From Candidatus Azophilus lithoversatilis (GTDB lineage Bacteria; Pseudomonadota; Gammaproteobacteria; Pseudomonadales; Azotimanducaceae), in NCBI GenBank assembly GCA_028278675.1, contig JAQAJJ010000013.1, positions 2,555 through 37,447 on the forward strand: a stretch of DNA of 34,893 nt. The letters run 5' to 3'. This document shows positions 14,531 to 34,893 of this stretch, piece after piece. A program made the translations under genes and the position numbers. The first letter of the stretch is position 1. Each line of letters opens with the position of its first letter. A model generated the notes under the pieces. It had not been told where the DNA came from. It made no database searches and saw only the letters and a program-made list of their open reading frames with translations.

Positions 14531-14587
14531 AAGTGTGTGTCCCGGTGTTCGGTGTCCCGGTGTTCGGTAAGTGTGTGTCCCGTGACC
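14531..14587 (-). repeat. GGGACACAC-core repeat array 1
   Basis: Three tandem units on the plus strand: AAGTGTGTGTCCCGGTGTTCG without a break into GTGTCCCGGTGTTCGGT, then AAGTGTGTGTCCCGTGACC. On the minus strand each has the core GGGACAC, in two of them GGGACACAC. It lies in the 314-bp gap between the divergent SDR and MaoC genes. The same core is found in three other arrays (28365-28506, 32980-33096, 34770-34893), with different flanks. Confidence 0.75.
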
Positions 14588-22744: not shown

Positions 22745-23956
22745 CTAGAGGAATTCGAGGGCCTTTTCGACGCCGGCGACCAGTCGTTCGACGTCGGTGG
22801 CTGAATTATACAACGCGAATGAGGCGCGGATGGTGCCCGGAATGCCGAGTCGTTCCATGAGAGGCATGGCGCAATGGTGTCCGGTGCGCACGGCGATGCC
22901 CTGTTGGTCGAGCAACGTGCCGAAGTCGTGCGGGTGGCCCGTGTCGATCAGGAAGGAAACCACCGAGACCCGCTCGCTGGGCTCGCCGACCATCCGCACG
23001 CCTGGAACTTGCTTGAGATGGCGGATCGCCTCGCTGACCAGCGCCGCTTCCCGGTCGCGCAGCGCTTCGCGGGGCAGACCGCCGAGATAGTCAACGGCCG
23101 CTCCGAACCCGATGGCGCCGGCAATGTTTGGCGTGCCGGCCTCGAACTTGTAGGGCAGTTTGTTGTAGGTAGTGCGCTCAATGCTCACGTGCTCGATCAT
23201 TTCGCCGCCTCCTTGGTAAGGAGGCAGGCTCTCAAGCAGGTCGGCCCTGCCGTACAGCGCACCGATGCCTGTGGGGCCGAACAGCTTGTGCGCCGAGAAT
23301 GCGTAGAAGTCGCAGCCGAGGCGCGCCACATCCACGTCGACGTGCTGCACCGCCTGGGCGCCGTCGATCAAGGTCAGAGCGCCTTGGCGATTGGCTGCGT
23401 CAATAAGGTCCGCAACCGGATTCAGGGTGCCAAGCGCGTTGCTCACGTGGCCGACGGCCACCAGCTTGGTGTGCCGGCCGAGCTTGGCGTGGAAGTCCTC
23501 GAGGTCAATCTCCCCGGTTGGCGTCACTCGGCAGGCCATCAGCGCCGCGCCGCTGCGTTGGCAGAGCAGTTGCCAGGGCACGATGTTGGAGTGGTGCTCC
23601 ATTTCCGTGATGAGCACTTCATCGCCCGGACCGAACCGGTCCGTCAGGCAGGCGGCGGCTAGGTTGATGCCCTCGGTGGTGCCGCGGGTGAAGATGATCT
23701 GTCGGGCCTCGCCTGCGCCGATCAGGGCGGCGACCTTTGCGCGGGCGTCCTCTAAGGCCGCGGTGGCCTCGTCCGCCAGCACATGGGCGGCTCGATGGAC
23801 GTTGGCGTTGTAGCGCTCGTAGTAGTCGCGGATGGCGTCGATGACCGCCTGCGGCTTCTGCGTGGTTGCGGCGCTGTCGAGGTAGGTTAGCGGTTGCCCG
23901 TTGATCCGCCGGGCGAGCAGGGGAAAGTCGCCACCGATGTCGAGCGACCGCGCCAT
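22745..23956 (-). CDS. sufS: SufS, group II cysteine desulfurase
   Basis: A 403-aa PLP enzyme that extracts sulfur from cysteine. The N terminus has LTYLDSAATTQKPQAVID; ITEMEHHSNIVPWQLL, TLIDGAQAVQHVDVDV, the PLP Lys in FSAHKLFGPTGIG and the catalytic Cys in VRTGHHCAMPLM are in order. Group II features such as the YKFEAGTPNIAGAIG segment are present. ATG 23956 lies 1 bp after the sufD stop; GTG 23965 would overlap sufD. Partner of SufE at the end of the operon. Confidence 0.95.
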   Translation of the reverse strand: MARSLDIGGDFPLLARRINGQPLTYLDSAATTQKPQAVIDAIRDYYERYNANVHRAAHVLADEATAALEDARAKVAALIGAGEARQIIFTRGTTEGINLAAACLTDRFGPGDEVLITEMEHHSNIVPWQLLCQRSGAALMACRVTPTGEIDLEDFHAKLGRHTKLVAVGHVSNALGTLNPVADLIDAANRQGALTLIDGAQAVQHVDVDVARLGCDFYAFSAHKLFGPTGIGALYGRADLLESLPPYQGGGEMIEHVSIERTTYNKLPYKFEAGTPNIAGAIGFGAAVDYLGGLPREALRDREAALVSEAIRHLKQVPGVRMVGEPSERVSVVSFLIDTGHPHDFGTLLDQQGIAVRTGHHCAMPLMERLGIPGTIRASFALYNSATDVERLVAGVEKALEFL

Positions 23957-23957
23957 G

Positions 23958-25082
23958 TCAAGCACTCATGAAGTGCGCGGCGAATGCGGTTGCGGCGCGC
24001 TCCGCGAACGGCCCGGCGAGGCCGTCGCGCAGAAAGCCGAGGCTGAGCAGGCGCTGGGCCTGCTGCGGGCCCAAGCCCCGGCTCAGGAGGTAGAACAGCA
24101 CTTCGGCGTCCAATTGCCCGACGGTCGCGCCGTGGGCGCAGCGCACATCGTCGTTGTAAATCTCCAGCTCCGGCTTGGTGTTGACCTCGGCGCTGGAGTC
24201 GAGGGCGAGATTGCGGTTGGAGAGGTCCGCATCGGCGCCGGCCGCCCCAGGATGGATGTGGATGCGGCCATTGAAGGTGCAGCGGCTCCTGCCTGCCGCC
24301 AAGTTGTGCTGCTTGATGCGGCTGACCGTGCCTCGGCTGGCGTGCTCGATCACGACTTGTTGATCGAGGCGTCCGCCCTCCTGAATCAAGGCGGCCCCGA
24401 CGCTGGAGAGACGGGCACCCTCGCCAGCGAGCGCGACGTTGAGATCCTGTCGCTGAAAGTTGCCCACGGTGCATTGATGGTTGAGCGTTAGCGCTGCGTT
24501 GCGCTGCAAATGCACCTGCAGCAAAGACCAACGATCGACACTCGACGCGAGTTCGGCGGTGGCGCAGGTGGCCTCGGAGTCCGGTCCGAGGGATAGCACC
24601 AGGACTTGTGCCCCTAAGCCGCCTTCACTGGCCGCTTCGGCCGCTTCCTGTTCGATATCGACCCGGCAGCCTGGGGCCACCTGCAGGAGCACCGGAGCGC
24701 TGACACCCAAGGAGGGGGCCGCCAGGCGAAGAGGATGGCTCGGCGTCCGCTCGACTTTGATCAGCCAGCCGGTGCCGGCCCGCGCGGCAGCGATGCCCGC
24801 CAGTGGATACCGGTTCAGGTCGATCCCGAACTGTGGCGGCGCGTCCAGCTCATCGAAGCGATGCAGGGCTGCTTCCGGAGGCAGCGCCTCCACTGGCGGG
24901 TCTTGATGCACGTCGGTTTGGATCAGCGCATCGGTGACCTTCGGCAGCGGCGAGTACTTCCAAGTTTCCCGCACCAACTTGCCTCCTAGGGCTCGTCGGC
25001 AGCGCGTTAAGCCCTCGGCGCCGAGCCAAGGCGGCGCCTCCAGCGAGCTGAGGGCCGCCATGTCACTTAGTCCGATAGCCAT
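23958..25082 (-). CDS. sufD: SufD, scaffold subunit of SufBCD
   Basis: A 374-aa SufD. The C-terminal core has the family block KPELEIYNDDVRCAHGATVG and LDAEVLFYLLSRGLGPQQA; the beta-helix core precedes it. SufD pairs with SufB on the SufC ATPase dimer. ATG 25082 overlaps sufC by 16 bp and has GAAGG 6 bp upstream; ATG 25061 is an alternative. The N-terminal 100 residues are poorly conserved, as usual. Confidence 0.93.
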   Translation of the reverse strand: MAIGLSDMAALSSLEAPPWLGAEGLTRCRRALGGKLVRETWKYSPLPKVTDALIQTDVHQDPPVEALPPEAALHRFDELDAPPQFGIDLNRYPLAGIAAARAGTGWLIKVERTPSHPLRLAAPSLGVSAPVLLQVAPGCRVDIEQEAAEAASEGGLGAQVLVLSLGPDSEATCATAELASSVDRWSLLQVHLQRNAALTLNHQCTVGNFQRQDLNVALAGEGARLSSVGAALIQEGGRLDQQVVIEHASRGTVSRIKQHNLAAGRSRCTFNGRIHIHPGAAGADADLSNRNLALDSSAEVNTKPELEIYNDDVRCAHGATVGQLDAEVLFYLLSRGLGPQQAQRLLSLGFLRDGLAGPFAERAATAFAAHFMSA

Positions 25083-25809
25083 GCATAGCCTTCGGCCTCC
25101 AGCTTCTCCGCCAGATGCCTATCGCCGCTGGCGACGATGCGGCCTTCGCTGAGCACATGAACGCGGTCGGGAACGATGTGGTTGAGCAGCCGTTGGTAGT
25201 GGGTGATCAGCAGCACGCCGGTGTCGGCGCTGCAAAAGCGGTTGATCCCGGCGGCGACGGTTTGCAGAGCGTCGATGTCGAGGCCGGAGTCGGTTTCATC
25301 GAGCACGGCGAGCTTGGGTTCGAGCAACAGCAGCTGCAGGATTTCGTTGCGCTTCTTCTCGCCGCCGCTGAAGCCCTCGTTGACCCCCCGTTTGAGGAAC
25401 TCCGGGTTCAACTCCAGGCTCTTTGCCAAGGCGCGGGCTCGCTTCATGAAGCTGACCGCCGATTCGGGTTGCGCCCCTTGGGCGGCCCGGTGGCTGTCCC
25501 AGGCTGCCTTGAGAAACTCCATGTTGCTGAGGCCAGGAATCTCCACCGGGTACTGAAAAGCCAGGAATAGGCCCGCTTGAGCCCGTGCCTCAGGTTCAAG
25601 GCCGGTGAGGCCGGCGCCGTTGAAGGATACCTGCCCGGCGGTGACCTCGTAGCCGGGCCGCCCGGCCAGCACATTGGCCAAGGTGCTCTTGCCGGAGCCG
25701 TTGGGGCCCATGATGGCGTGAATCTCCCCGGTCTCAACGCGCAGGCTCAAGTTCCTGAGAATCGGTTCGCCGTTGACGCTGGCATGCAGGTCATGGACCT
25801 CGAGCAGGC

Positions 25810-25813
<4 letters not shown>
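25067..25813 (-). CDS. sufC: SufC, ATPase of SufBCD
   Basis: A 248-aa ABC-type ATPase: Walker [11 protein letters not shown]-loop [10 protein letters not shown], SufC-specific signature [10 protein letters not shown], Walker [13 protein letters not shown], and the H-loop in [11 protein letters not shown]. It powers the SufBCD scaffold in the cytoplasm. The start is TTG 25813 in a TTGA overlap with the sufB stop, which gives the standard family length. Confidence 0.96.
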
Positions 25814-27267
<1,454 letters not shown>

Positions 27268-27959: not shown

Positions 27960-28337
27960 TCAAGCCTTCGGCCCGTCGAAAGACTTGATGTGTTCGTACC
28001 ATCCAGAACCCCTTACCCGCAGCGGAATCCCACCAAGCCGTTCGCCCGTCTCAAGGTGTTTTCCCCGACCCTCCCAGGCGTTGGGGTCACGCTGCCACTC
28101 GTTGAGGACGCGCTCCGCCTCCTCATAGCTCGGCGCTTCGACCTCGTAAAGCGAGAGGTATTCGGAGACGGTCTCACCGTCGAGGTGCGGCCCGCTCAGC
28201 CTGAATACGCTGCCGCGAATGAAGTTGGGGCACTTGGCGGTGTCCTCGATGTGCTGAACAACGAACCACTCCTCGAAGGGCGCTCGGCTGTCGGCGGCCG
28301 GTGGCTCGCAAAGGCCGATGAGAACGAAACGGGGCAT
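27960..28337 (-). CDS. Small dimeric alpha/beta-barrel protein (EthD/DUF4286-like)
   Basis: A 125-aa protein. It has FVLIGLCEPPAADS as first strand, FEEWFVVQHIEDTAKCPNFIRG with the H-x-x-D-x pattern of EthD-like proteins, a GETVSEYLSLYEVEAPSYEEA strand-helix unit, and a hydrophilic tail. The ATG at 28337 has AGAGG about 8 bp upstream; the frame is open further 5' only through repeat DNA. EthD-like proteins often accompany P450s and catabolic enzymes, but the assignment is by fold pattern only. Confidence 0.7.
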   Translation of the reverse strand: MPRFVLIGLCEPPAADSRAPFEEWFVVQHIEDTAKCPNFIRGSVFRLSGPHLDGETVSEYLSLYEVEAPSYEEAERVLNEWQRDPNAWEGRGKHLETGERLGGIPLRVRGSGWYEHIKSFDGPKA

Positions 28338-28364
28338 GGCTTTTCCTCTTCCCTGGTGAGTTGT

Positions 28365-28506
28365 TTTGAATCGGACATTTGAATCGGACACACATAAGTT
28401 GAGCGGGAGGAACGCGGTTGAGCGGGATACACATAAGTGTACATTGCTCGCAGTTGAGCGGGACACACATAAGTTGAGCGGGACGCACATTGAATCGGAC
28501 GCCCCC
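28365..28506 (+). repeat. GGGACACAC-core repeat array 2
   Basis: Seven tandem degenerate units, each starting TTGA: TTGAATCGGACA, TTGAATCGGACACACATAAG, TTGAGCGGGAGGAACGCGG, TTGAGCGGGATACACATAAG plus 16 nt, TTGAGCGGGACACACATAAG, TTGAGCGGGACGCACA and TTGAATCGGACGCCCCC. Unit consensus is TTGAGCGGGACACACATAAG. It lies between the EthD-like gene and the P450 gene; nothing else is seen in the rest of that 332-bp gap (28507-28669). Confidence 0.85.
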
Positions 28507-28669: not shown

Positions 28670-30106
28670 ATGGCCACTGGCTGCCCCTTTACCTTGGACA
28701 TCTTTGCCGAGCCGGAGGATCGCTCCGGCGATACCGGCGCTCAATTCGATTTCCCCTTGATGCCGGAAGGGCAGGCATTCGACATGGGCCACGCGCCGGA
28801 CGGCAGGCCGCTTTTCGATCCGCGCATCCTTCAGTCCGCCGAGTTCTTTCGCAATCCCTACCCTTACTACCGCATTCTGCGGGATCACTACCCGGTCTAT
28901 CACGACCGGCTGCACAACACCTACTACGTCACCCGCTACGAGGATATCACCCGCTGTTACTTTGACGACGAGGGTTTCAACACCATTCCTAAGGGCAGTT
29001 CCAGCGGCGTGCTCGGCAACACCCAACTGGAGCTTTCCGGCGTGGAGCACCGGCGGCGGCGCAACCTTTACGGGCAGCATTTGGTCGGCCAGTCGCTCAA
29101 GAACCGCATTCCCGCCATTCAGCGCCAAGCACGAGAGATGATCGGGGCTTGGGACGGCATCAACGATACCGCAGTGGTGTCCGAGTCCGATGGGGTGCGC
29201 ACTGTGGAGTTGGGCATGGCCTTCGCCAACGAATTTCCCATCCGCGTGGTCTGCGAAGTGCTCGGCTTTCCCAAGGAAGCCCAAGATGACTTCTACTATT
29301 GGTACAACTCCATGATGTCCGGGCTGGGTGGTTCGGAGACCCATCAGCAGGGATTGGAGGCTCGCCAGCATCTGGAGGACTACGTGGAGGGCATCGTCGA
29401 GGCACGGCGCAAGCAGCCTACCTACCTGTACGACGAGGCCGGAGACCCCATCAGCAAGGACATCATCTCCAAGCTATCCGAAACCAATCTGGACGTCGAC
29501 TACCTCTCCACGGAAGAAATCACCTCCAACATCGCCTTGGTGGTCGGTGGCGGCGGCGAAACGACCCGGGGTGCCATCCTTAACATGTGGTACCTGCTGC
29601 TGCTGCACCCGGAGCAGTTCGAGGCGGTCCGCAACGACGATTCGCTTTGGGACGCAGCGTTCCACGAGACGCTGCGCCATTCCTCCTCCATCGGTGGCCA
29701 GCCCCGCCACAACACCTACGATGTGGTGATGCACGGGGTCAAGGTGCCGGCGGGCTCACTCATGGAGATGGTGGATTTCTCCGCCAACCACGACGAGCGG
29801 GTGTTCAAGGACCCGGAGATGTTGACCATCTTCCGCGATGACCTCTCCACCGGCAAGATTCTGCGCAGTGGGTACAACAAGAACGGTCGCCGCAACCACA
29901 TGGCCTTCGGGGTTGGTCCGCATCTATGTCCGGGCGCTTGGATATCCCATCAGGAAGCGGTCGAAGGTTCCCGCATCTTATTGAAACACCTAAAAAATCC
30001 GCGTATCAACGTGGAGCGAATGGCGAAGGACATCGATGGTGTTGGCTTGAGGCCCTTGGGTATTGTGTCGGTGCGCGAACTACATCTCGACTATGACCTT
30101 CCATGA
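28670..30106 (+). CDS. Cytochrome P450 monooxygenase
   Basis: A 478-aa P450. I-helix VVGGGGETTRGA, K-helix ExxR in ETLRHSS, and heme loop MAFGVGPHLCPGAWISH with ligand Cys420. The N terminus carries about 45 residues before the usual FDPRILQSAEFFRNPYPYYRILR start. ATG 28670 has GGGAGAG just upstream. The next gene, 111 bp away, is a heme-less relative with a matching N-terminal half (NPYPLLAVLRENYPCYRDW against NPYPYYRILRDHYPVYHDR). Substrate unknown. Confidence 0.95.
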   Translation: MATGCPFTLDIFAEPEDRSGDTGAQFDFPLMPEGQAFDMGHAPDGRPLFDPRILQSAEFFRNPYPYYRILRDHYPVYHDRLHNTYYVTRYEDITRCYFDDEGFNTIPKGSSSGVLGNTQLELSGVEHRRRRNLYGQHLVGQSLKNRIPAIQRQAREMIGAWDGINDTAVVSESDGVRTVELGMAFANEFPIRVVCEVLGFPKEAQDDFYYWYNSMMSGLGGSETHQQGLEARQHLEDYVEGIVEARRKQPTYLYDEAGDPISKDIISKLSETNLDVDYLSTEEITSNIALVVGGGGETTRGAILNMWYLLLLHPEQFEAVRNDDSLWDAAFHETLRHSSSIGGQPRHNTYDVVMHGVKVPAGSLMEMVDFSANHDERVFKDPEMLTIFRDDLSTGKILRSGYNKNGRRNHMAFGVGPHLCPGAWISHQEAVEGSRILLKHLKNPRINVERMAKDIDGVGLRPLGIVSVRELHLDYDLP

Positions 30107-30217: not shown

Positions 30218-31552
30218 GTGACGGAGAGCGGCTTGACTGTGATTGGCGCCAATGGGGTGGCCATCCCGGAGGGCACCCACGGCGATGCCGGCTTTCGCAC
30301 CTACGAAGTGTTCCAGCGGGAGCGAGTGGGCCAGTCCACGGCCAAGATCAAGCCAGCGCAGTTGGTCTCGCGGGAGTTTGCCGACAACCCCTATCCGCTG
30401 CTGGCCGTCCTGCGCGAGAACTACCCGTGCTACCGGGATTGGCTGAACAATTGCTTTTGGATCACCCGCTACAACGACGTCACTTCGGTGTTCACCGACG
30501 ACGCCAATTTCGAAACCCGCTCCAAGGCTTGGCACCTCGGCATCGAGGGCTTCGGCACGGACTTGCGGGCCGCGTTGCCGGTGCTGACCGCCCAGGCGAA
30601 CGCATGGGACCTCAACATCCGGCGCTTGGCCGAGGCAGCGGTCGCGGATTTCGCGCCGCGTGGTGAAGCCGATCTCGCCACCGAATTCGCGGCGCGCCTG
30701 AACATGCAGCTTTGGCTGGCGATGCTCGATGTGACAGAAGAGGATGCGCCACTGATCGCCGCCCTGCTGTGGCGGCTGCACCGGGGCGTGAGTTGGGATC
30801 CCCGCATTTGTCTGGATGGCATTGCCGCAGCGGAGGAACTCGCCGCTTGCCTAGCGCCATTGCTCGATGCGCGGCGGAGTGTGCCGGGCGGCGACTTGAT
30901 CTCCGCAGTGGCTGGCTTGGAGTTGGCCGATGGTCCGGCAGAGCCGAAGGACTTGGTGGCGACGCTGCTGGAGATGGATTTCGAGACCCTGCACGGCGCA
31001 CTGGCCAATCTGTGGCTGGCGCTGTTGAATGACCCGGAGGGGTTTGAAAAGGTTTGCGCCGACCGGCGCTATGTCAAATTGGCGGTATTGGAGACCTTCC
31101 GCCATTCGACGCCGGTGCTGGCCGCGCCGCGCTTTGCCCGGCATGAGGTGGAGCGTTTCGGCCGCCTGATTCCAAAGGGCGGGTTGCTGCTGTGCTCAGC
31201 GGCGGCAGCCAATCGGGATCCGCGCATCTTTGCCGACCCAGACCGCTTCATCGCCGGCCGCAAGGACGTTTGCCACCGTGAGGCCCGGGGTCAGTATCGG
31301 GCGGACGGTTTGGCAATGGGCATGACGCCGGGCCTAGGGTCGCCCACCGCCCATCCGGCGGTGCCGGAAGACCGCCCCCGGTCGCTGTACGCCCTGACTC
31401 GGGACACCTTGGTCACTGCGTCCAATACCTTGCTGGAAGCGGTGGATCAGATCGCCCTGGCGGACGGCGTCGAACGGCCGCGCGCCGTCTGCCGCAGACT
31501 CGGGGAGATGCACACCTGCTGGCGTTTGCCCGTGCGCTTTCGGATACGTTGA
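30218..31552 (+). CDS. P450-fold protein lacking the heme-ligand cysteine
   Basis: A 444-aa protein clearly homologous to the neighbouring P450: DNPYPLLAVLRENYPCYRDW, FWITRYNDVTSVFTDDANFE, K-helix LETFRHSTPV with ExxR kept, and ANRDPRIFADPDRFIAGRK. The heme loop, gap-free against the neighbour's MAFGVGPHLCPGAW, reads LAMGMTPGLGSPTA: the Cys is Gly374, and the conserved His and Gly are also lost. The I-helix oxygen-activation motif is replaced by MDFETLHG. The frame is intact over its whole length, so it is not simply decaying. Known heme-less P450 homologs (EryCII, DesVIII) act as glycosyltransferase partners, so a structural or partner role is possible. The start is GTG 30218. Confidence 0.88.
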   Translation: MTESGLTVIGANGVAIPEGTHGDAGFRTYEVFQRERVGQSTAKIKPAQLVSREFADNPYPLLAVLRENYPCYRDWLNNCFWITRYNDVTSVFTDDANFETRSKAWHLGIEGFGTDLRAALPVLTAQANAWDLNIRRLAEAAVADFAPRGEADLATEFAARLNMQLWLAMLDVTEEDAPLIAALLWRLHRGVSWDPRICLDGIAAAEELAACLAPLLDARRSVPGGDLISAVAGLELADGPAEPKDLVATLLEMDFETLHGALANLWLALLNDPEGFEKVCADRRYVKLAVLETFRHSTPVLAAPRFARHEVERFGRLIPKGGLLLCSAAAANRDPRIFADPDRFIAGRKDVCHREARGQYRADGLAMGMTPGLGSPTAHPAVPEDRPRSLYALTRDTLVTASNTLLEAVDQIALADGVERPRAVCRRLGEMHTCWRLPVRFRIR

Positions 31553-31613
31553 TGCGGCCCGCCGCGGTCCGTTTTTCGGGCCGTTCCGCTTCATTTTTCA
31601 TTTGGGGAGATTC

Positions 31614-32933
31614 ATGGAGGCAAAAACGCCCAACCACGCACTGAGTCCCATGCGCTGCCCGACGCATCTGGAAGATGTTGACCTGTTCTCGCCGGGCGCG
31701 TCGGAACATTGGTATGCCGCCTACGACATTCTGCACGCGCAAGCGCCTGTGCATCGCATCCCCGGCGAGGGATTTGAGCCGGGCACTGATGCTTTCATTC
31801 TCTGCAAGCATGAGGACATTGCCCGCGTGGTGCGCGACGAGCGGCGCTATCCGGTCATTGGCAGTCTGTTTCTGCAGCAACTGCTGGAAGCCGGTGAGCC
31901 GCCATACGACCGGCCGGGCGTTGGCGCGATTACGGCGTCGATGGCCAGCTTACGCCCCAATCCAAAGCTTTGGCGGGCGCACCGGCAGGAACTGACCGAT
32001 CCTTGGGTCGGCCCCGGTGCCGGCCGCAACGAGCTGATGATCGAGCAGGTGGCCCACGAATTGATCGACCGCTGGATCGATCGCGGGCAGGTCGAGTTTG
32101 TCTCCGAGTTTGCTCAGCCCCTGCCGCAGATGGTGATGGCCAACATCCTTGGCTGGCCGCTATCCGACCTCAAACTGCTCAAGCACTTTGGCGATGGCAC
32201 CGTAAAGCCCTTCGTGTATGGCCGCAAGCACAACAATCTGCTGGACGAGGAGGAGACCAAGGCGCAGCAGGGGGTGCTGGAGGAGTTCAAGCAGTACACG
32301 GCAAACCTGATTCAGGAGAAGCGCCGGTCCCCCCAGGAGGACATGATCAGTTTCCTGACCGAGGTGGAATATTCCCCACTTGGACGCAAGCTGACCGACT
32401 TGGAGATCAACGGCATCGTTTATGCCATGGTCATCGGCGGCTTGGAGACGACCCAATATGCCTTGGCCGAGGAAGTGCAACTGCTGATCGAGAGAGATGG
32501 CGTGTGGGATGCGATTCGGGCTGATCGCAGCAAGATGCGAGCCTTCATCGAAGAAGGCATGCGCCTGCGCTCCCCGACCCAGGGGCTGTCCACGCGGATC
32601 ACCAGCCAGGATGAAGTGTTTCAAGGAGTTAAGGTGCCGAACGGCTCCTACCTTCACTTGCGCTGGGCGGCGGCCAACATCGACCCCGATGAGTGGCAGT
32701 GCCCTCAGGAACTGCAGCTGGACCGCAAGGCCGGCACCCGGCATCTGGTGTTCTCCCAAGGCCCACGGGTATGCCCTGGTGCCCATTTGTCGCGCATTGA
32801 GCAACTGGTTGCTTGGAACGCCCTGTGCGACCGCATAAGAGGCTTCTCATATGGGGAGGGCAACCAGTTTTTGCACCAACCGGGAATCATGCTGGGAACA
32901 CTGGAGCTTCACCTCGAATTCGACGCTGCATAG
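31614..32933 (+). CDS. Cytochrome P450 monooxygenase
   Basis: A 439-aa P450. I-helix VIGGLETTQYALAEE, K-helix ExxR in EEGMRLRSPT, and heme loop LVFSQGPRVCPGAHLSR with ligand Cys387. The C terminus ends LELHLEFDAA. ATG 31614 is 4 bp after GGGGAG (31604-31609). It follows the heme-less gene by 61 bp on the same strand, so the three probably form one transcription unit. Substrate unknown. Confidence 0.95.
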   Translation: MEAKTPNHALSPMRCPTHLEDVDLFSPGASEHWYAAYDILHAQAPVHRIPGEGFEPGTDAFILCKHEDIARVVRDERRYPVIGSLFLQQLLEAGEPPYDRPGVGAITASMASLRPNPKLWRAHRQELTDPWVGPGAGRNELMIEQVAHELIDRWIDRGQVEFVSEFAQPLPQMVMANILGWPLSDLKLLKHFGDGTVKPFVYGRKHNNLLDEEETKAQQGVLEEFKQYTANLIQEKRRSPQEDMISFLTEVEYSPLGRKLTDLEINGIVYAMVIGGLETTQYALAEEVQLLIERDGVWDAIRADRSKMRAFIEEGMRLRSPTQGLSTRITSQDEVFQGVKVPNGSYLHLRWAAANIDPDEWQCPQELQLDRKAGTRHLVFSQGPRVCPGAHLSRIEQLVAWNALCDRIRGFSYGEGNQFLHQPGIMLGTLELHLEFDAA

Positions 32934-32979: not shown

Positions 32980-33096
32980 GTCGTCGACTGGGACACACGT
33001 CGACTGGGACGTCGACTGGGACACACATCTTTGCCGGTCGTCGTCGACTGGGACACACATCTTTGCGCGTCGTCGACTGGGACACACATCTTTGCC
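32980..33096 (+). repeat. GGGACACAC-core repeat array 3
   Basis: Five units sharing GTCGACTGGGAC: GTCGTCGACTGGGACACAC (32980-32998), GTCGACTGGGAC (32999-33010), and three longer ones ending CACACATCTTTGC (33011-33035, 33036-33066, 33067-33096). The core GGGACACAC is exact in four. It lies right after the last P450. The remainder of the 678-bp gap (33097-33611) contains no gene or element that I can support. Confidence 0.85.
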
Positions 33097-33611: not shown

Positions 33612-34646
33612 TCAAGTAGGCAGTGGCGTCTCCCAGCACCGCATACCTCGGTCAGCGATCCACTGCTGGAGCGCTCGTGCGCAGCCGTGTGCCCGCTGCC
33701 GCCTGTCCATTGTCGCCACTCGCGCCAGCCATCGCCCCAGCGGATCCAGTTTGCTCCGAGCGCCGTCCGCTGCTGTCGCCTCTGCCGCCATGATTCCCTC
33801 AAGCAGCTCGACGTAGCCGCGAAGCGTCATCCGGACGCGCGGCGCGGGCGTCGTCCGATTGGTGCCCGCCCGAGCCGCCTTCGGCTCGTTGGCTCTAGCC
33901 CCGGCTGCCTCATCGTCTTCAGTGGCGGCGGCCACCTTGTCATCGGGTGCCTCCCTGCCGCCAAGGCCCGACGCCAGCGGCGCCAGGAACTCGTCCAACG
34001 CCTCCGCCCGGTTTACCCGAAGGCGCTCCCCGATTGAAGCGTCCTGGCACTCTGAAAGACGGTCCGCCAACTTCGCCCGAACCGGGTTCAGGTCAACGTA
34101 AGCCATTGCTGCAACAACCGCTTCCTCGTCCAGCAGCGCACCCGAATAGAACCTCTGCTCGAAGAAGTGGCCCTTCACCCCGTCCTCTTGGTTCGCCCTG
34201 CGGGCGATCGGCTGCTTGATGTGCTTCATGAACGACGACAGCGACCCCAGCGTTGCCCGTGCCCGCGCCAGACGCTCCGGATCCGCCAGCAGGCGCTCGC
34301 GCTCCAAGGGCTTGCGTTCCTCCGCCACCGCCCCGTCCTCCGTCGGCGGGAATGCCTCCACCCAGCGACGCGCCACCTCCGCCTCGCTCCACGCAAAGCA
34401 GGCTTTCGGGTCATAGTACGCTGCCAAGTGGAAGTGGTTGCTCAGCACGGAGTAGCTGTCGATCTCGACCGCGAAGAACTGCGCTAGGAACAGTAGCCGC
34501 TCAATCAGCCAGCGGCGGCGGTGGGAGCAGTCCCGGCCAGTGGCCGGGTCACGCCCGCAGAGGAAGGCACCGCGTACGCAACGGGACACCAAGTGGTAGC
34601 TCAGCGCGTTCTCGGAATCCACCAGTTTACTGCGGGGAATGGCCAT
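33612..34646 (-). CDS. REP-associated tyrosine transposase (RAYT / Y1, HUH type)
   Basis: A 344-aa single-strand DNA transposase of the IS200-like Y1 family. N-terminal YHLVSRCVRGAFLCG, then HRRRWLIERLLFLAQFFAVE, the HUH motif in SVLSNHFHLAAYY, SFMKHIKQPIARRANQEDG and VKGHFFEQRFYSGALLDEE, then MAYVDLNPVRAKLADR, whose Tyr is the likely nucleophile. The C-terminal third (after about residue 215) is hydrophilic and family-variable. Such proteins are not mobile themselves but act on nearby palindromic repeats. ATG 34646 is used; the frame is open to 34724. No IS ends or second gene are seen. Repeat arrays with a GGGACACAC core lie upstream (34770-34893) and downstream (32980-33096). Confidence 0.85.
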   Translation of the reverse strand: MAIPRSKLVDSENALSYHLVSRCVRGAFLCGRDPATGRDCSHRRRWLIERLLFLAQFFAVEIDSYSVLSNHFHLAAYYDPKACFAWSEAEVARRWVEAFPPTEDGAVAEERKPLERERLLADPERLARARATLGSLSSFMKHIKQPIARRANQEDGVKGHFFEQRFYSGALLDEEAVVAAMAYVDLNPVRAKLADRLSECQDASIGERLRVNRAEALDEFLAPLASGLGGREAPDDKVAAATEDDEAAGARANEPKAARAGTNRTTPAPRVRMTLRGYVELLEGIMAAEATAADGARSKLDPLGRWLARVATMDRRQRAHGCARALQQWIADRGMRCWETPLPT

Positions 34647-34769
34647 AGGGGATAGGTTGGCGCGCTCGGTAGGCCACCGTCCAGAGGCGATCTCTGCAGT
34701 CCTTGGTGGATATTGACCCGCCATCGCCGCTCCATTTCAGGAACCCCGTTGTGCGAGTTCTCCGCGACC

Positions 34770-34893
34770 TTGTAAGGTGGGAATTGTGTGTGTCCCGATC
34801 CTGATTTGTAAGGTGGGAATTGTGTGTGTCCCGATCCTGATGTGTGATGAGGTGAGAATTGTGTGTGTCCCGATCCTGATGTGTAAGGTGGGA
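34770..34893 (-). repeat. GGGACACAC-core repeat array 4, cut by the window edge
   Basis: Tandem 36-bp units: 34770-34805 and 34806-34841 are identical, beginning TTGTAAGGTGGGAATTGTG and containing TGTGTGTGTCCCGATCCTGA. A third (34842-34880, 39 bp) is a variant with GTGTGATGAGGTGAGAATT at its start. The fourth begins at 34881 and runs off the window. Each contains GTGTGTCCC, the reverse complement of GGGACACAC. It lies 46 bp before the open frame of the RAYT gene (124 bp before ATG 34646), on its 5' side. Confidence 0.9.

What the first reader, a model, noticed from the sequence alone, without database searches (positions are those of the whole stretch)
30218..31552. Intact P450-fold protein without the heme cysteine, between two true P450s
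Gly374 (nt 31337-31339) replaces the heme-ligand Cys in a gap-free alignment to the adjacent P450. The I-helix AG-x-ET motif is also gone, but ExxR remains and the frame is open for 444 codons. An uncatalysed P450 relative kept intact beside its paralog suggests a partner or allosteric role, as for EryCII with a glycosyltransferase.
Basis: partly seen in the sequence, partly recalled or inferred. Interest (0 to 1): 0.8.

Follow-up and report, generated by a model that had tools for sequence, protein, structure and literature searches.

The report
Heme-less P450 twin beside working P450
A protein shaped like the oxidising enzyme cytochrome P450, but stripped of its heme-holding parts, is kept intact beside the same working P450 in many unrelated bacteria, which suggests that the two work as a pair.

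Summary
ORF 30218-31552 (444 codons) is a real, selected gene. It has a P450 fold (AlphaFold pLDDT 87; best Foldseek match CYP134A1, TM 0.72-0.76) but no heme-thiolate site. The I-helix pair E256-T257 is kept, while its glycines became E252 and D254.

None of 69 distinct family members (window included) has the cysteine, so its loss predates the family's spread. dN/dS is 0.09-0.23. The family also lacks the C-helix (19 of 19 aligned), has an invariant Pro two residues before the Cys slot, and carries a conserved extra N-terminal segment.

The strongest finding is gene pairing. A Cys-bearing P450 (28670-30106) has its ortholog directly upstream in 58 of 59 loci; the exception starts at a contig end. 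Searching from that P450 instead, 4 of 4, 8 of 8 and 15 of 18 copies had the heme-less partner. Four solo copies, three of them in that last search, lack it.

Best reading: a non-catalytic partner subunit of the adjacent P450. It would work like EryCII but is not in its family (95 bits, cut-off 343). Binding is inferred, not shown.

The parts
30218..31552 (+). Heme-less P450-fold protein (pseudo-P450, 'ps'), GTG start, 444 aa
   Evidence: ORF and translation; Pfam p450; AF2 pLDDT 87 and Foldseek to CYP134A1; 69 distinct family members; dN/dS 0.09-0.23
30293..30340 (+). Conserved extra N-terminal segment, residues 26-41 (F-R-T-Y-E-V-F-Q-R-E-R...T); predicted helix 26-34
   Evidence: R27, E30, Q33, R34, R36 in 68 of 68 rows that cover the site; helix in the AF2 model at low confidence; RSYEVFQRQ kept in the divergent homolog at the end of L127; outside the aligned range with the upstream family
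30971..30997 (+). I-helix motif, residues 252-260 (E-M-D-F-E-T-L-H-G): glycines of AGxET replaced by E252 and D254, E-T kept
   Evidence: Alignment; D254 69 of 69, T257 66 of 69, H259 63 of 69; HExxH in 47 of 69 but not in the window
31091..31102 (+). ExxR motif, E292-R295, retained
   Evidence: 69 of 69
31265..31393 (+). Rebuilt heme loop, residues 350-392: Gly374 is the FGxG glycine (31337-31339), Ala378 the Cys slot (31349-31351), His379 next to it; invariant P376, P380, P383
   Evidence: Profile-profile and family alignments; column counts; AF2 confidence only 61-71 over residues 351-390
28670..30106 (+). Cys-bearing P450 ('up'), constant upstream neighbour; Cys420 at 29927-29929, FGVGPHLCPG
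   Evidence: Translation; Pfam 77.3 bits; ortholog (62-94% identical) adjacent in 58 of 59 loci; Cys in 67 of 67 paired and 4 of 4 solo copies; dN/dS 0.04-0.10
31602..32933 (+). Third P450 ('down') with Cys (FSQGPRVCPG); not a constant part of the pair (likely start ATG 31614)
   Evidence: ortholog directly after ps in three other genus genomes (L009-L011) and about 3 kb away in L056

Best explanation
The gene encodes a heme-less P450-fold protein that serves as a dedicated non-catalytic partner of the P450 encoded just upstream. Shown: the heme-thiolate ligand is gone in the whole family, the gene is under purifying selection, the fold is predicted with good confidence, and the two genes travel as a unit. 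Inferred: the two proteins bind, probably through the conserved N-terminal segment and the rebuilt face where the heme loop was, and the partner stabilises or tunes the catalytic P450 (substrate pocket or electron delivery). This would be like EryCII's effect on its glycosyltransferase, but with a P450 as the client. Neighbour genes suggest a catabolic oxidation step: short-chain dehydrogenases, Rieske oxygenases, acyl-CoA enzymes.
For: The upstream P450 is adjacent in 58 of 59 loci found by searching with ps (L089 starts inside ps at a contig end). Searched the other way, from the P450, in sampled groups: family of G312, 4 of 4 copies in 199 genomes have ps next door; class of G317, 8 of 8 copies in 395 genomes (two cut by contig ends); order of G306, 15 of 18 copies in 10 genomes. 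In the genus, 7 of 9 genomes have both and 2 of 9 neither. Two tandem up-ps pairs lie in each of L047, L048 and L049. There are 71 distinct pairs with a median gap near 35 nt (measured to the profile start of ps, not its start codon); over 67 of them the two distance matrices correlate at r = 0.66 (best of 999 shuffles 0.14). Heme features lost: Cys 0 of 69, Pro376 69 of 69 at the site of the usual His/Arg, D254 69 of 69 in place of an I-helix Gly, and the C-helix H-x-x-x-R stretch absent in 19 of 19 ps rows of the tree alignment. New conserved features: N-terminal segment and a loop with invariant Args. dN/dS is 0.09-0.23. EryCII precedent: Cys absent, C helices absent, an added N-terminal helix as main contact surface (PMC3391682, passages read).
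Against: Four solo P450s of the upstream type (L099, L117, L118, L126; 60-62% identical to the window's, no more divergent than the paired L104 at 60.6%) have no ps beside them, and G919 and G920 show no ps at E 1e-20 beyond Cys-bearing P450s, so the P450 does not always need it. Genes of one operon share history, so the tree correlation does not prove contact. The N-terminal helix is of low confidence in the model (pLDDT about 48-54).
Confidence: 0.6

Rival explanations
1. The protein activates a different enzyme (for example a dehydrogenase or an unlinked glycosyltransferase), as EryCII does, and merely shares an operon with the P450.
For: EryCII-like architecture. Short-chain dehydrogenase domains in 23 of 115 neighbour ORFs; the largest cluster of like non-P450 ORFs that is not a shadow of the pair spans 37 of 59 loci, its family not confirmed.
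Against: No other ORF cluster was found in all loci, while the upstream P450 was in 58 of 59. No glycosyltransferase family is among the 25 most frequent families in 115 neighbour ORFs (62 rarer families were not shown).
Confidence: 0.13
2. The protein still binds heme, or another tetrapyrrole, through a different ligand such as His379 or Cys352, and acts as a sensor or a low-activity enzyme.
For: His379 aligns to the Cys in the profile-profile alignment; residue 379 is aromatic in 69 of 69 (H 54, Y 9, F 4, W 2), and C352 is in 67 of 69.
Against: Residue 379 is Phe or Trp in 6 of 69; the divergent homolog piece L132 has neither His379 nor Cys352. D254 and E252 occupy former glycine positions of the I-helix and the C-helix stretch is missing.
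Confidence: 0.08
3. The emptied pocket has become a non-heme site (ligand or metal) with its own chemistry; the I-helix E-x-D-H-E-T-L-H-G would supply ligands.
For: HExxH in 47 of 69; D254 69 of 69, H259 63 of 69.
Against: Residue 255 is Phe in six of the seven genus members, the window's included; H255, H259 and H379 occur together in only 42 of 69, 37 of them with E256. The loop is modelled with low confidence.
Confidence: 0.09
4. A recently inactivated P450 on its way to decay.
For: Loss of the Cys.
Against: Cys absent in all 69 distinct members; ps is one clade with support 100 (19 rows); dN/dS 0.09-0.23; intact frame.
Confidence: 0.01

Closest known systems
P450-derived glycosyltransferase activators EryCII / DesVIII (NCBIfam TIGR04515)
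   Same: P450 fold, heme Cys lost, C-helix lost, extra N-terminal helix, works with a client enzyme (EryCII features from PMC3391682, passages read).
   Different: Scores 95 bits against a cut-off of 343; other P450 places of the same genome score up to 170, and ps ranks 13th of 25 places. The constant neighbour is a P450, not a glycosyltransferase.
CYP134A1 (CypX); NCBIfam TIGR04538 (cyclodipeptide synthase-associated P450)
   Same: CYP134A1 is the best PDB sequence match for both ps and the upstream P450 and the best structural match for ps; TIGR04538 is the best NCBIfam match for ps and the upstream P450.
   Different: CYP134A1 is a heme enzyme; ps scores 117 bits against the TIGR04538 cut-off of 500 and lacks the heme site. 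The structure of the upstream P450 was not searched.
EutEFG, split inactive P450 in euthailol biosynthesis (PMC11574762, passages read)
   Same: Inactive P450 proposed to keep a structural role beside other enzymes.
   Different: A single cluster with a gene in three fragments, not a conserved intact family.
'Pseudo-P450s' of genome surveys (PMC7369989, passages read)
   Same: Would be placed there: has EXXR, lacks CXG.
   Different: Such proteins were not analysed further in that survey; here they form one conserved family.

Membership tests
Catalytic cytochrome P450 | P450 fold | tested here: met
   AF2 pLDDT 87.0, pTM 0.87; Foldseek E 1.3e-21 to 3nc3, TM 0.72-0.76 over the CYP134A1 entries 3nc3-3nc7
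Catalytic cytochrome P450 | Heme-ligand Cys in FxxGx[HR]xCxG | tested here: not met
   0 of 69 distinct members; Cys slot is Ala378
Catalytic cytochrome P450 | ExxR | tested here: met
   69 of 69
Catalytic cytochrome P450 | I-helix [AG]Gx[ED]T | tested here: not met
   ET kept, glycines replaced by E252 and D254
Catalytic cytochrome P450 | Heme binding and CO-difference spectrum | not testable with these tools
   Needs purified protein
P450-derived glycosyltransferase activator (TIGR04515) | Curated model score of at least 343 bits | tested here: not met
   95 bits for the window protein; 13th of 25 places in the own genome, none over the cut-off
P450-derived glycosyltransferase activator (TIGR04515) | Missing heme Cys | tested here: met
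P450-derived glycosyltransferase activator (TIGR04515) | Adjacent client glycosyltransferase | tested here: not met
   Constant neighbour is a P450; no glycosyltransferase among the 25 commonest families of 115 neighbour ORFs (62 rarer families not shown)
P450-derived glycosyltransferase activator (TIGR04515) | Physical complex with, and activation of, a client enzyme | not testable with these tools
   No complex prediction or bench work possible

The most novel reading that the evidence does not exclude
A two-subunit cytochrome P450: a catalytic heme subunit and a dedicated heme-less P450-fold subunit that arose once and is found as a unit in Gammaproteobacteria, Alphaproteobacteria and Acidimicrobiia. 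The pseudo-subunit shapes the partner's active site or its electron supply.
Probability: 0.42. Interest if true: 0.8.

Novelty: new variant of a known kind. Interest (0 to 1): 0.62.

Why it matters
Heme-less P450 relatives are known to me mainly as glycosyltransferase activators in antibiotic clusters (recalled, and PMC3391682). A conserved pairing of a catalytic P450 with a heme-less P450 would add pseudoenzyme control to one of the largest enzyme superfamilies. It would also explain why such P450s might fail when expressed alone. One genome survey that demanded both EXXR and CXG set such proteins aside (PMC7369989), which may be why the family has gone unnoticed. The solo copies offer a natural control for finding what the partner does.

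Tried and rejected
Rejected: recent pseudogene. Kinship with EryCII. Gly374 as the Cys replacement. Strict dependence of the upstream P450 on ps (solo copies). Metal site from HExxH, kept only as a weak rival.

Recounted: the counts of 74 family members and 79 pairs held repeated copies from overlapping loci. Searches removed them (69 members, 71 pairs, r 0.66 instead of 0.73), and the report uses only the recount.

Led nowhere: the plasmid search with ps gave 190 records, all below 60% identity; the 30 rows shown were annotated as P450 or not annotated. One hit that was opened was annotated as a P450, with no glycosyltransferase listed in the stretch shown. Eight paper searches listed no description of such a pair (open-access library only, so weak evidence of absence). 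The AF2 model of the upstream P450 was only moderate (pLDDT 76.9) and was not used for a fold search. No fusion of the two genes was noticed, but this was not searched for systematically.

Full report
WHAT IS THERE. The window lies in a 3.77 Mb genome of a nine-genome genus; its nearest named matches are MAGs titled Pseudomonadales or Gammaproteobacteria. ORF 30218-31552 is open for 444 codons. Pfam sees P450 weakly, 27.8 bits over residues 282-348. AlphaFold2 on 58 family members gives pLDDT 87.0 and pTM 0.87, and Foldseek places it on CYP134A1 with TM 0.72-0.76. It is a P450 fold by prediction.

THE OBSERVATION, CORRECTED. The heme cysteine is absent, but Gly374 is not its replacement. Profile-profile alignment with the adjacent P450 family (E 8.8e-54) sets Gly374 on the second glycine of F-G-V-G. 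A 67-protein alignment with Cys-bearing relatives sets Ala378 in the Cys column; prefers His379 there with a one-residue insertion at 378. The family consensus is AFGLGKPSxHPAVPEDRPRS, while some relatives with the Cys read FGLGKHFCVG. The I-helix keeps its Glu-Thr pair (E256, T257) and loses glycines to E252 and D254. ExxR is intact.

CONSERVATION. Across 69 distinct members, the window's included: Cys slot K 28, I 17, R 11, V 7, M 2, and E, A, N, T once each, never C; G374, P376, P380, P383, D254, E292 and R295 69 of 69; residue 379 always aromatic (H 54, Y 9, F 4, W 2). The only Cys residues in the loop 364-401 are in 4 of 69, away from the slot. The C-helix stretch H-x-x-x-R, a heme contact in P450s (recalled), is missing in 19 of 19 family rows of the tree alignment. 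Residues 27, 30, 33, 34 and 36 of an N-terminal segment, outside the range aligned with the upstream family, are invariant in 68 of 68 covered rows. In G895 a much more divergent partner gene follows a divergent upstream P450 (48% identical, one stop codon inside the match). Its N-terminal piece at a contig end is 26% identical to ps and keeps the N-terminal motif. A C-terminal piece at the start of another contig (L132), possibly of the same gene, also lacks the Cys and has Ile at position 374. dN/dS among six genus members is 0.09-0.23, against 0.04-0.10 for the upstream P450. In the own-genome loci that were fetched, 20 of 23 P450-like ORF rows have the heme motif; the rest are this gene twice and the downstream P450 cut before its Cys.

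PAIRING. Scanning a collection of 84,980 species genomes with ps, by a method that finds close relatives only, returned 59 loci, titled Gamma- and Alphaproteobacteria, Acidimicrobiia and relatives; one (L048) bears the title Candidatus Kuenenia. In 58 of 59 the ortholog of 28670-30106 (62-94% identical) lies immediately upstream on the same strand. The remaining one (L089) begins inside ps at a contig end. The test in the other direction used the upstream P450 family as query on sampled groups at E 1e-100 or 1e-120. Family of G312 (genome of L058, titled Caulobacteraceae): 4 of 199 genomes have it, 4 of 4 with ps adjacent. Class of G317 (genome of L064, titled Acidimicrobiaceae): 7 of 395 genomes, 8 copies, 8 of 8 with ps, of which L106 and L108 are cut by contig ends. 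Order of G306 (genome of L049, titled Alphaproteobacteria): 10 genomes, 18 copies, 15 with ps and 3 without. Some of these genomes were already in the ps-derived set, and the group centres were chosen from it. In the window's genus 7 of 9 genomes have both and 2 of 9 neither. In a sample of 293 genomes of the order, in which no other genus member matched, only the own genome has ps (E 1e-60) or the P450 (E 1e-100). L047, L048 and L049 each hold two tandem up-ps pairs. Counting all loci, 71 distinct pairs were seen. The third P450 of the window (31602-32933) follows ps in three other genus genomes and lies about 3 kb off in L056, so it is not part of the unit.

AGAINST. Four upstream-type P450s (L099, L117, L118, L126; 60-62% identical to the window's) have no ps next to them. 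Two of them (L099, L117) in the tree form a side branch of the same clade (ultrafast support 98), while the P450 of L108, which has a partner, branches outside both (support 97). In G919 and G920 no ps was found at E 1e-20 apart from Cys-bearing P450s; G919 is only 2.4 Mb and its completeness is unknown. So pairing looks ancestral, and ps can be lost or was not needed there. Ten residues differ between at least 97% of 67 paired and all 4 solo P450s; four solo copies are too few to read much into that.

HOW IT MOST LIKELY WORKS. Shown: no heme-thiolate ligand, loss before the family's spread, purifying selection, gene pairing. Inferred: ps binds the upstream P450 and stabilises or tunes it, with the N-terminal segment as docking element. 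The model is EryCII, whose crystal structure with EryCIII shows a P450 fold without the Cys, without C and C' helices, and with an added N-terminal helix as the main contact (PMC3391682, passages). The resemblance is in architecture only. On the EryCII family model ps scores 95 bits against a cut-off of 343, and twelve other places in the same genome score higher. The Cys was therefore most likely lost independently, though no tree with EryCII itself could be made.

SETTING. In 115 neighbour ORFs from 23 loci (of 173 candidates) short-chain dehydrogenases are commonest (23), followed by TetR regulators (6), then Rieske oxygenase parts, SnoaL-like and ThuA (5 each), zinc dehydrogenases and acyl-CoA enzymes. 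That suggests catabolism of some hydrophobic compound; the substrate is unknown.

ALTERNATIVES. Heme through His379 or Cys352 is unlikely, because both vary and neither is in the divergent L132 piece. A metal site from E-x-D-H-E-T-L-H is weakened by Phe255 in six of seven genus members; HExxH occurs in 47 of 69, together with His379 in 37 of 69.

NOVELTY. Eight searches of the open-access library listed no description of such a pair (listings seen, three papers read in passages). An inactive P450 with a supposed structural role is described in one cluster (PMC11574762, passages), and a survey set aside proteins lacking EXXR or CXG (PMC7369989, passages). I rate it a new variant of a known kind: a heme-less P450 of activator type whose constant companion is itself a P450.

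Noticed in passing
14534-14581, 28460-28469, 33018-33088, 34787-34871: The decamer GGGACACACA occurs 9 times (0.08 expected by shuffling); most copies lie in short tandem arrays of different unit length on both sides of the P450 cluster.
   Followed up: partly
33612-34724 (-): 370-aa ORF with an SNHFHLA motif and EQRFYSG...YVDLNPVRA, resembling REP-associated tyrosine transposases (recalled motif; no Pfam hit at 1e-3), next to the GGGACACACA arrays: a possible REP/RAYT system.
   Followed up: partly
22745-27267 (-): sufB, sufC, sufD and sufS genes of an iron-sulfur assembly operon just upstream of the P450 cluster.
   Followed up: no
27960-28490 (-): 176-aa ORF with no Pfam hit; relatives in L036, L037, L038, L039 and L044 (66-92% identical).
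   Followed up: partly
30971-30997; homologs in A1: Most family members carry HExxH in the I-helix of the heme-less protein (47 of 69), unexplained.
   Followed up: partly
L136, L137, L138, L139, L140: A further P450 group (FGLGxHFCxG) whose match to ps runs into its C-terminal part, in several of the same genomes; a Cys-bearing relative worth a deeper tree.
   Followed up: partly
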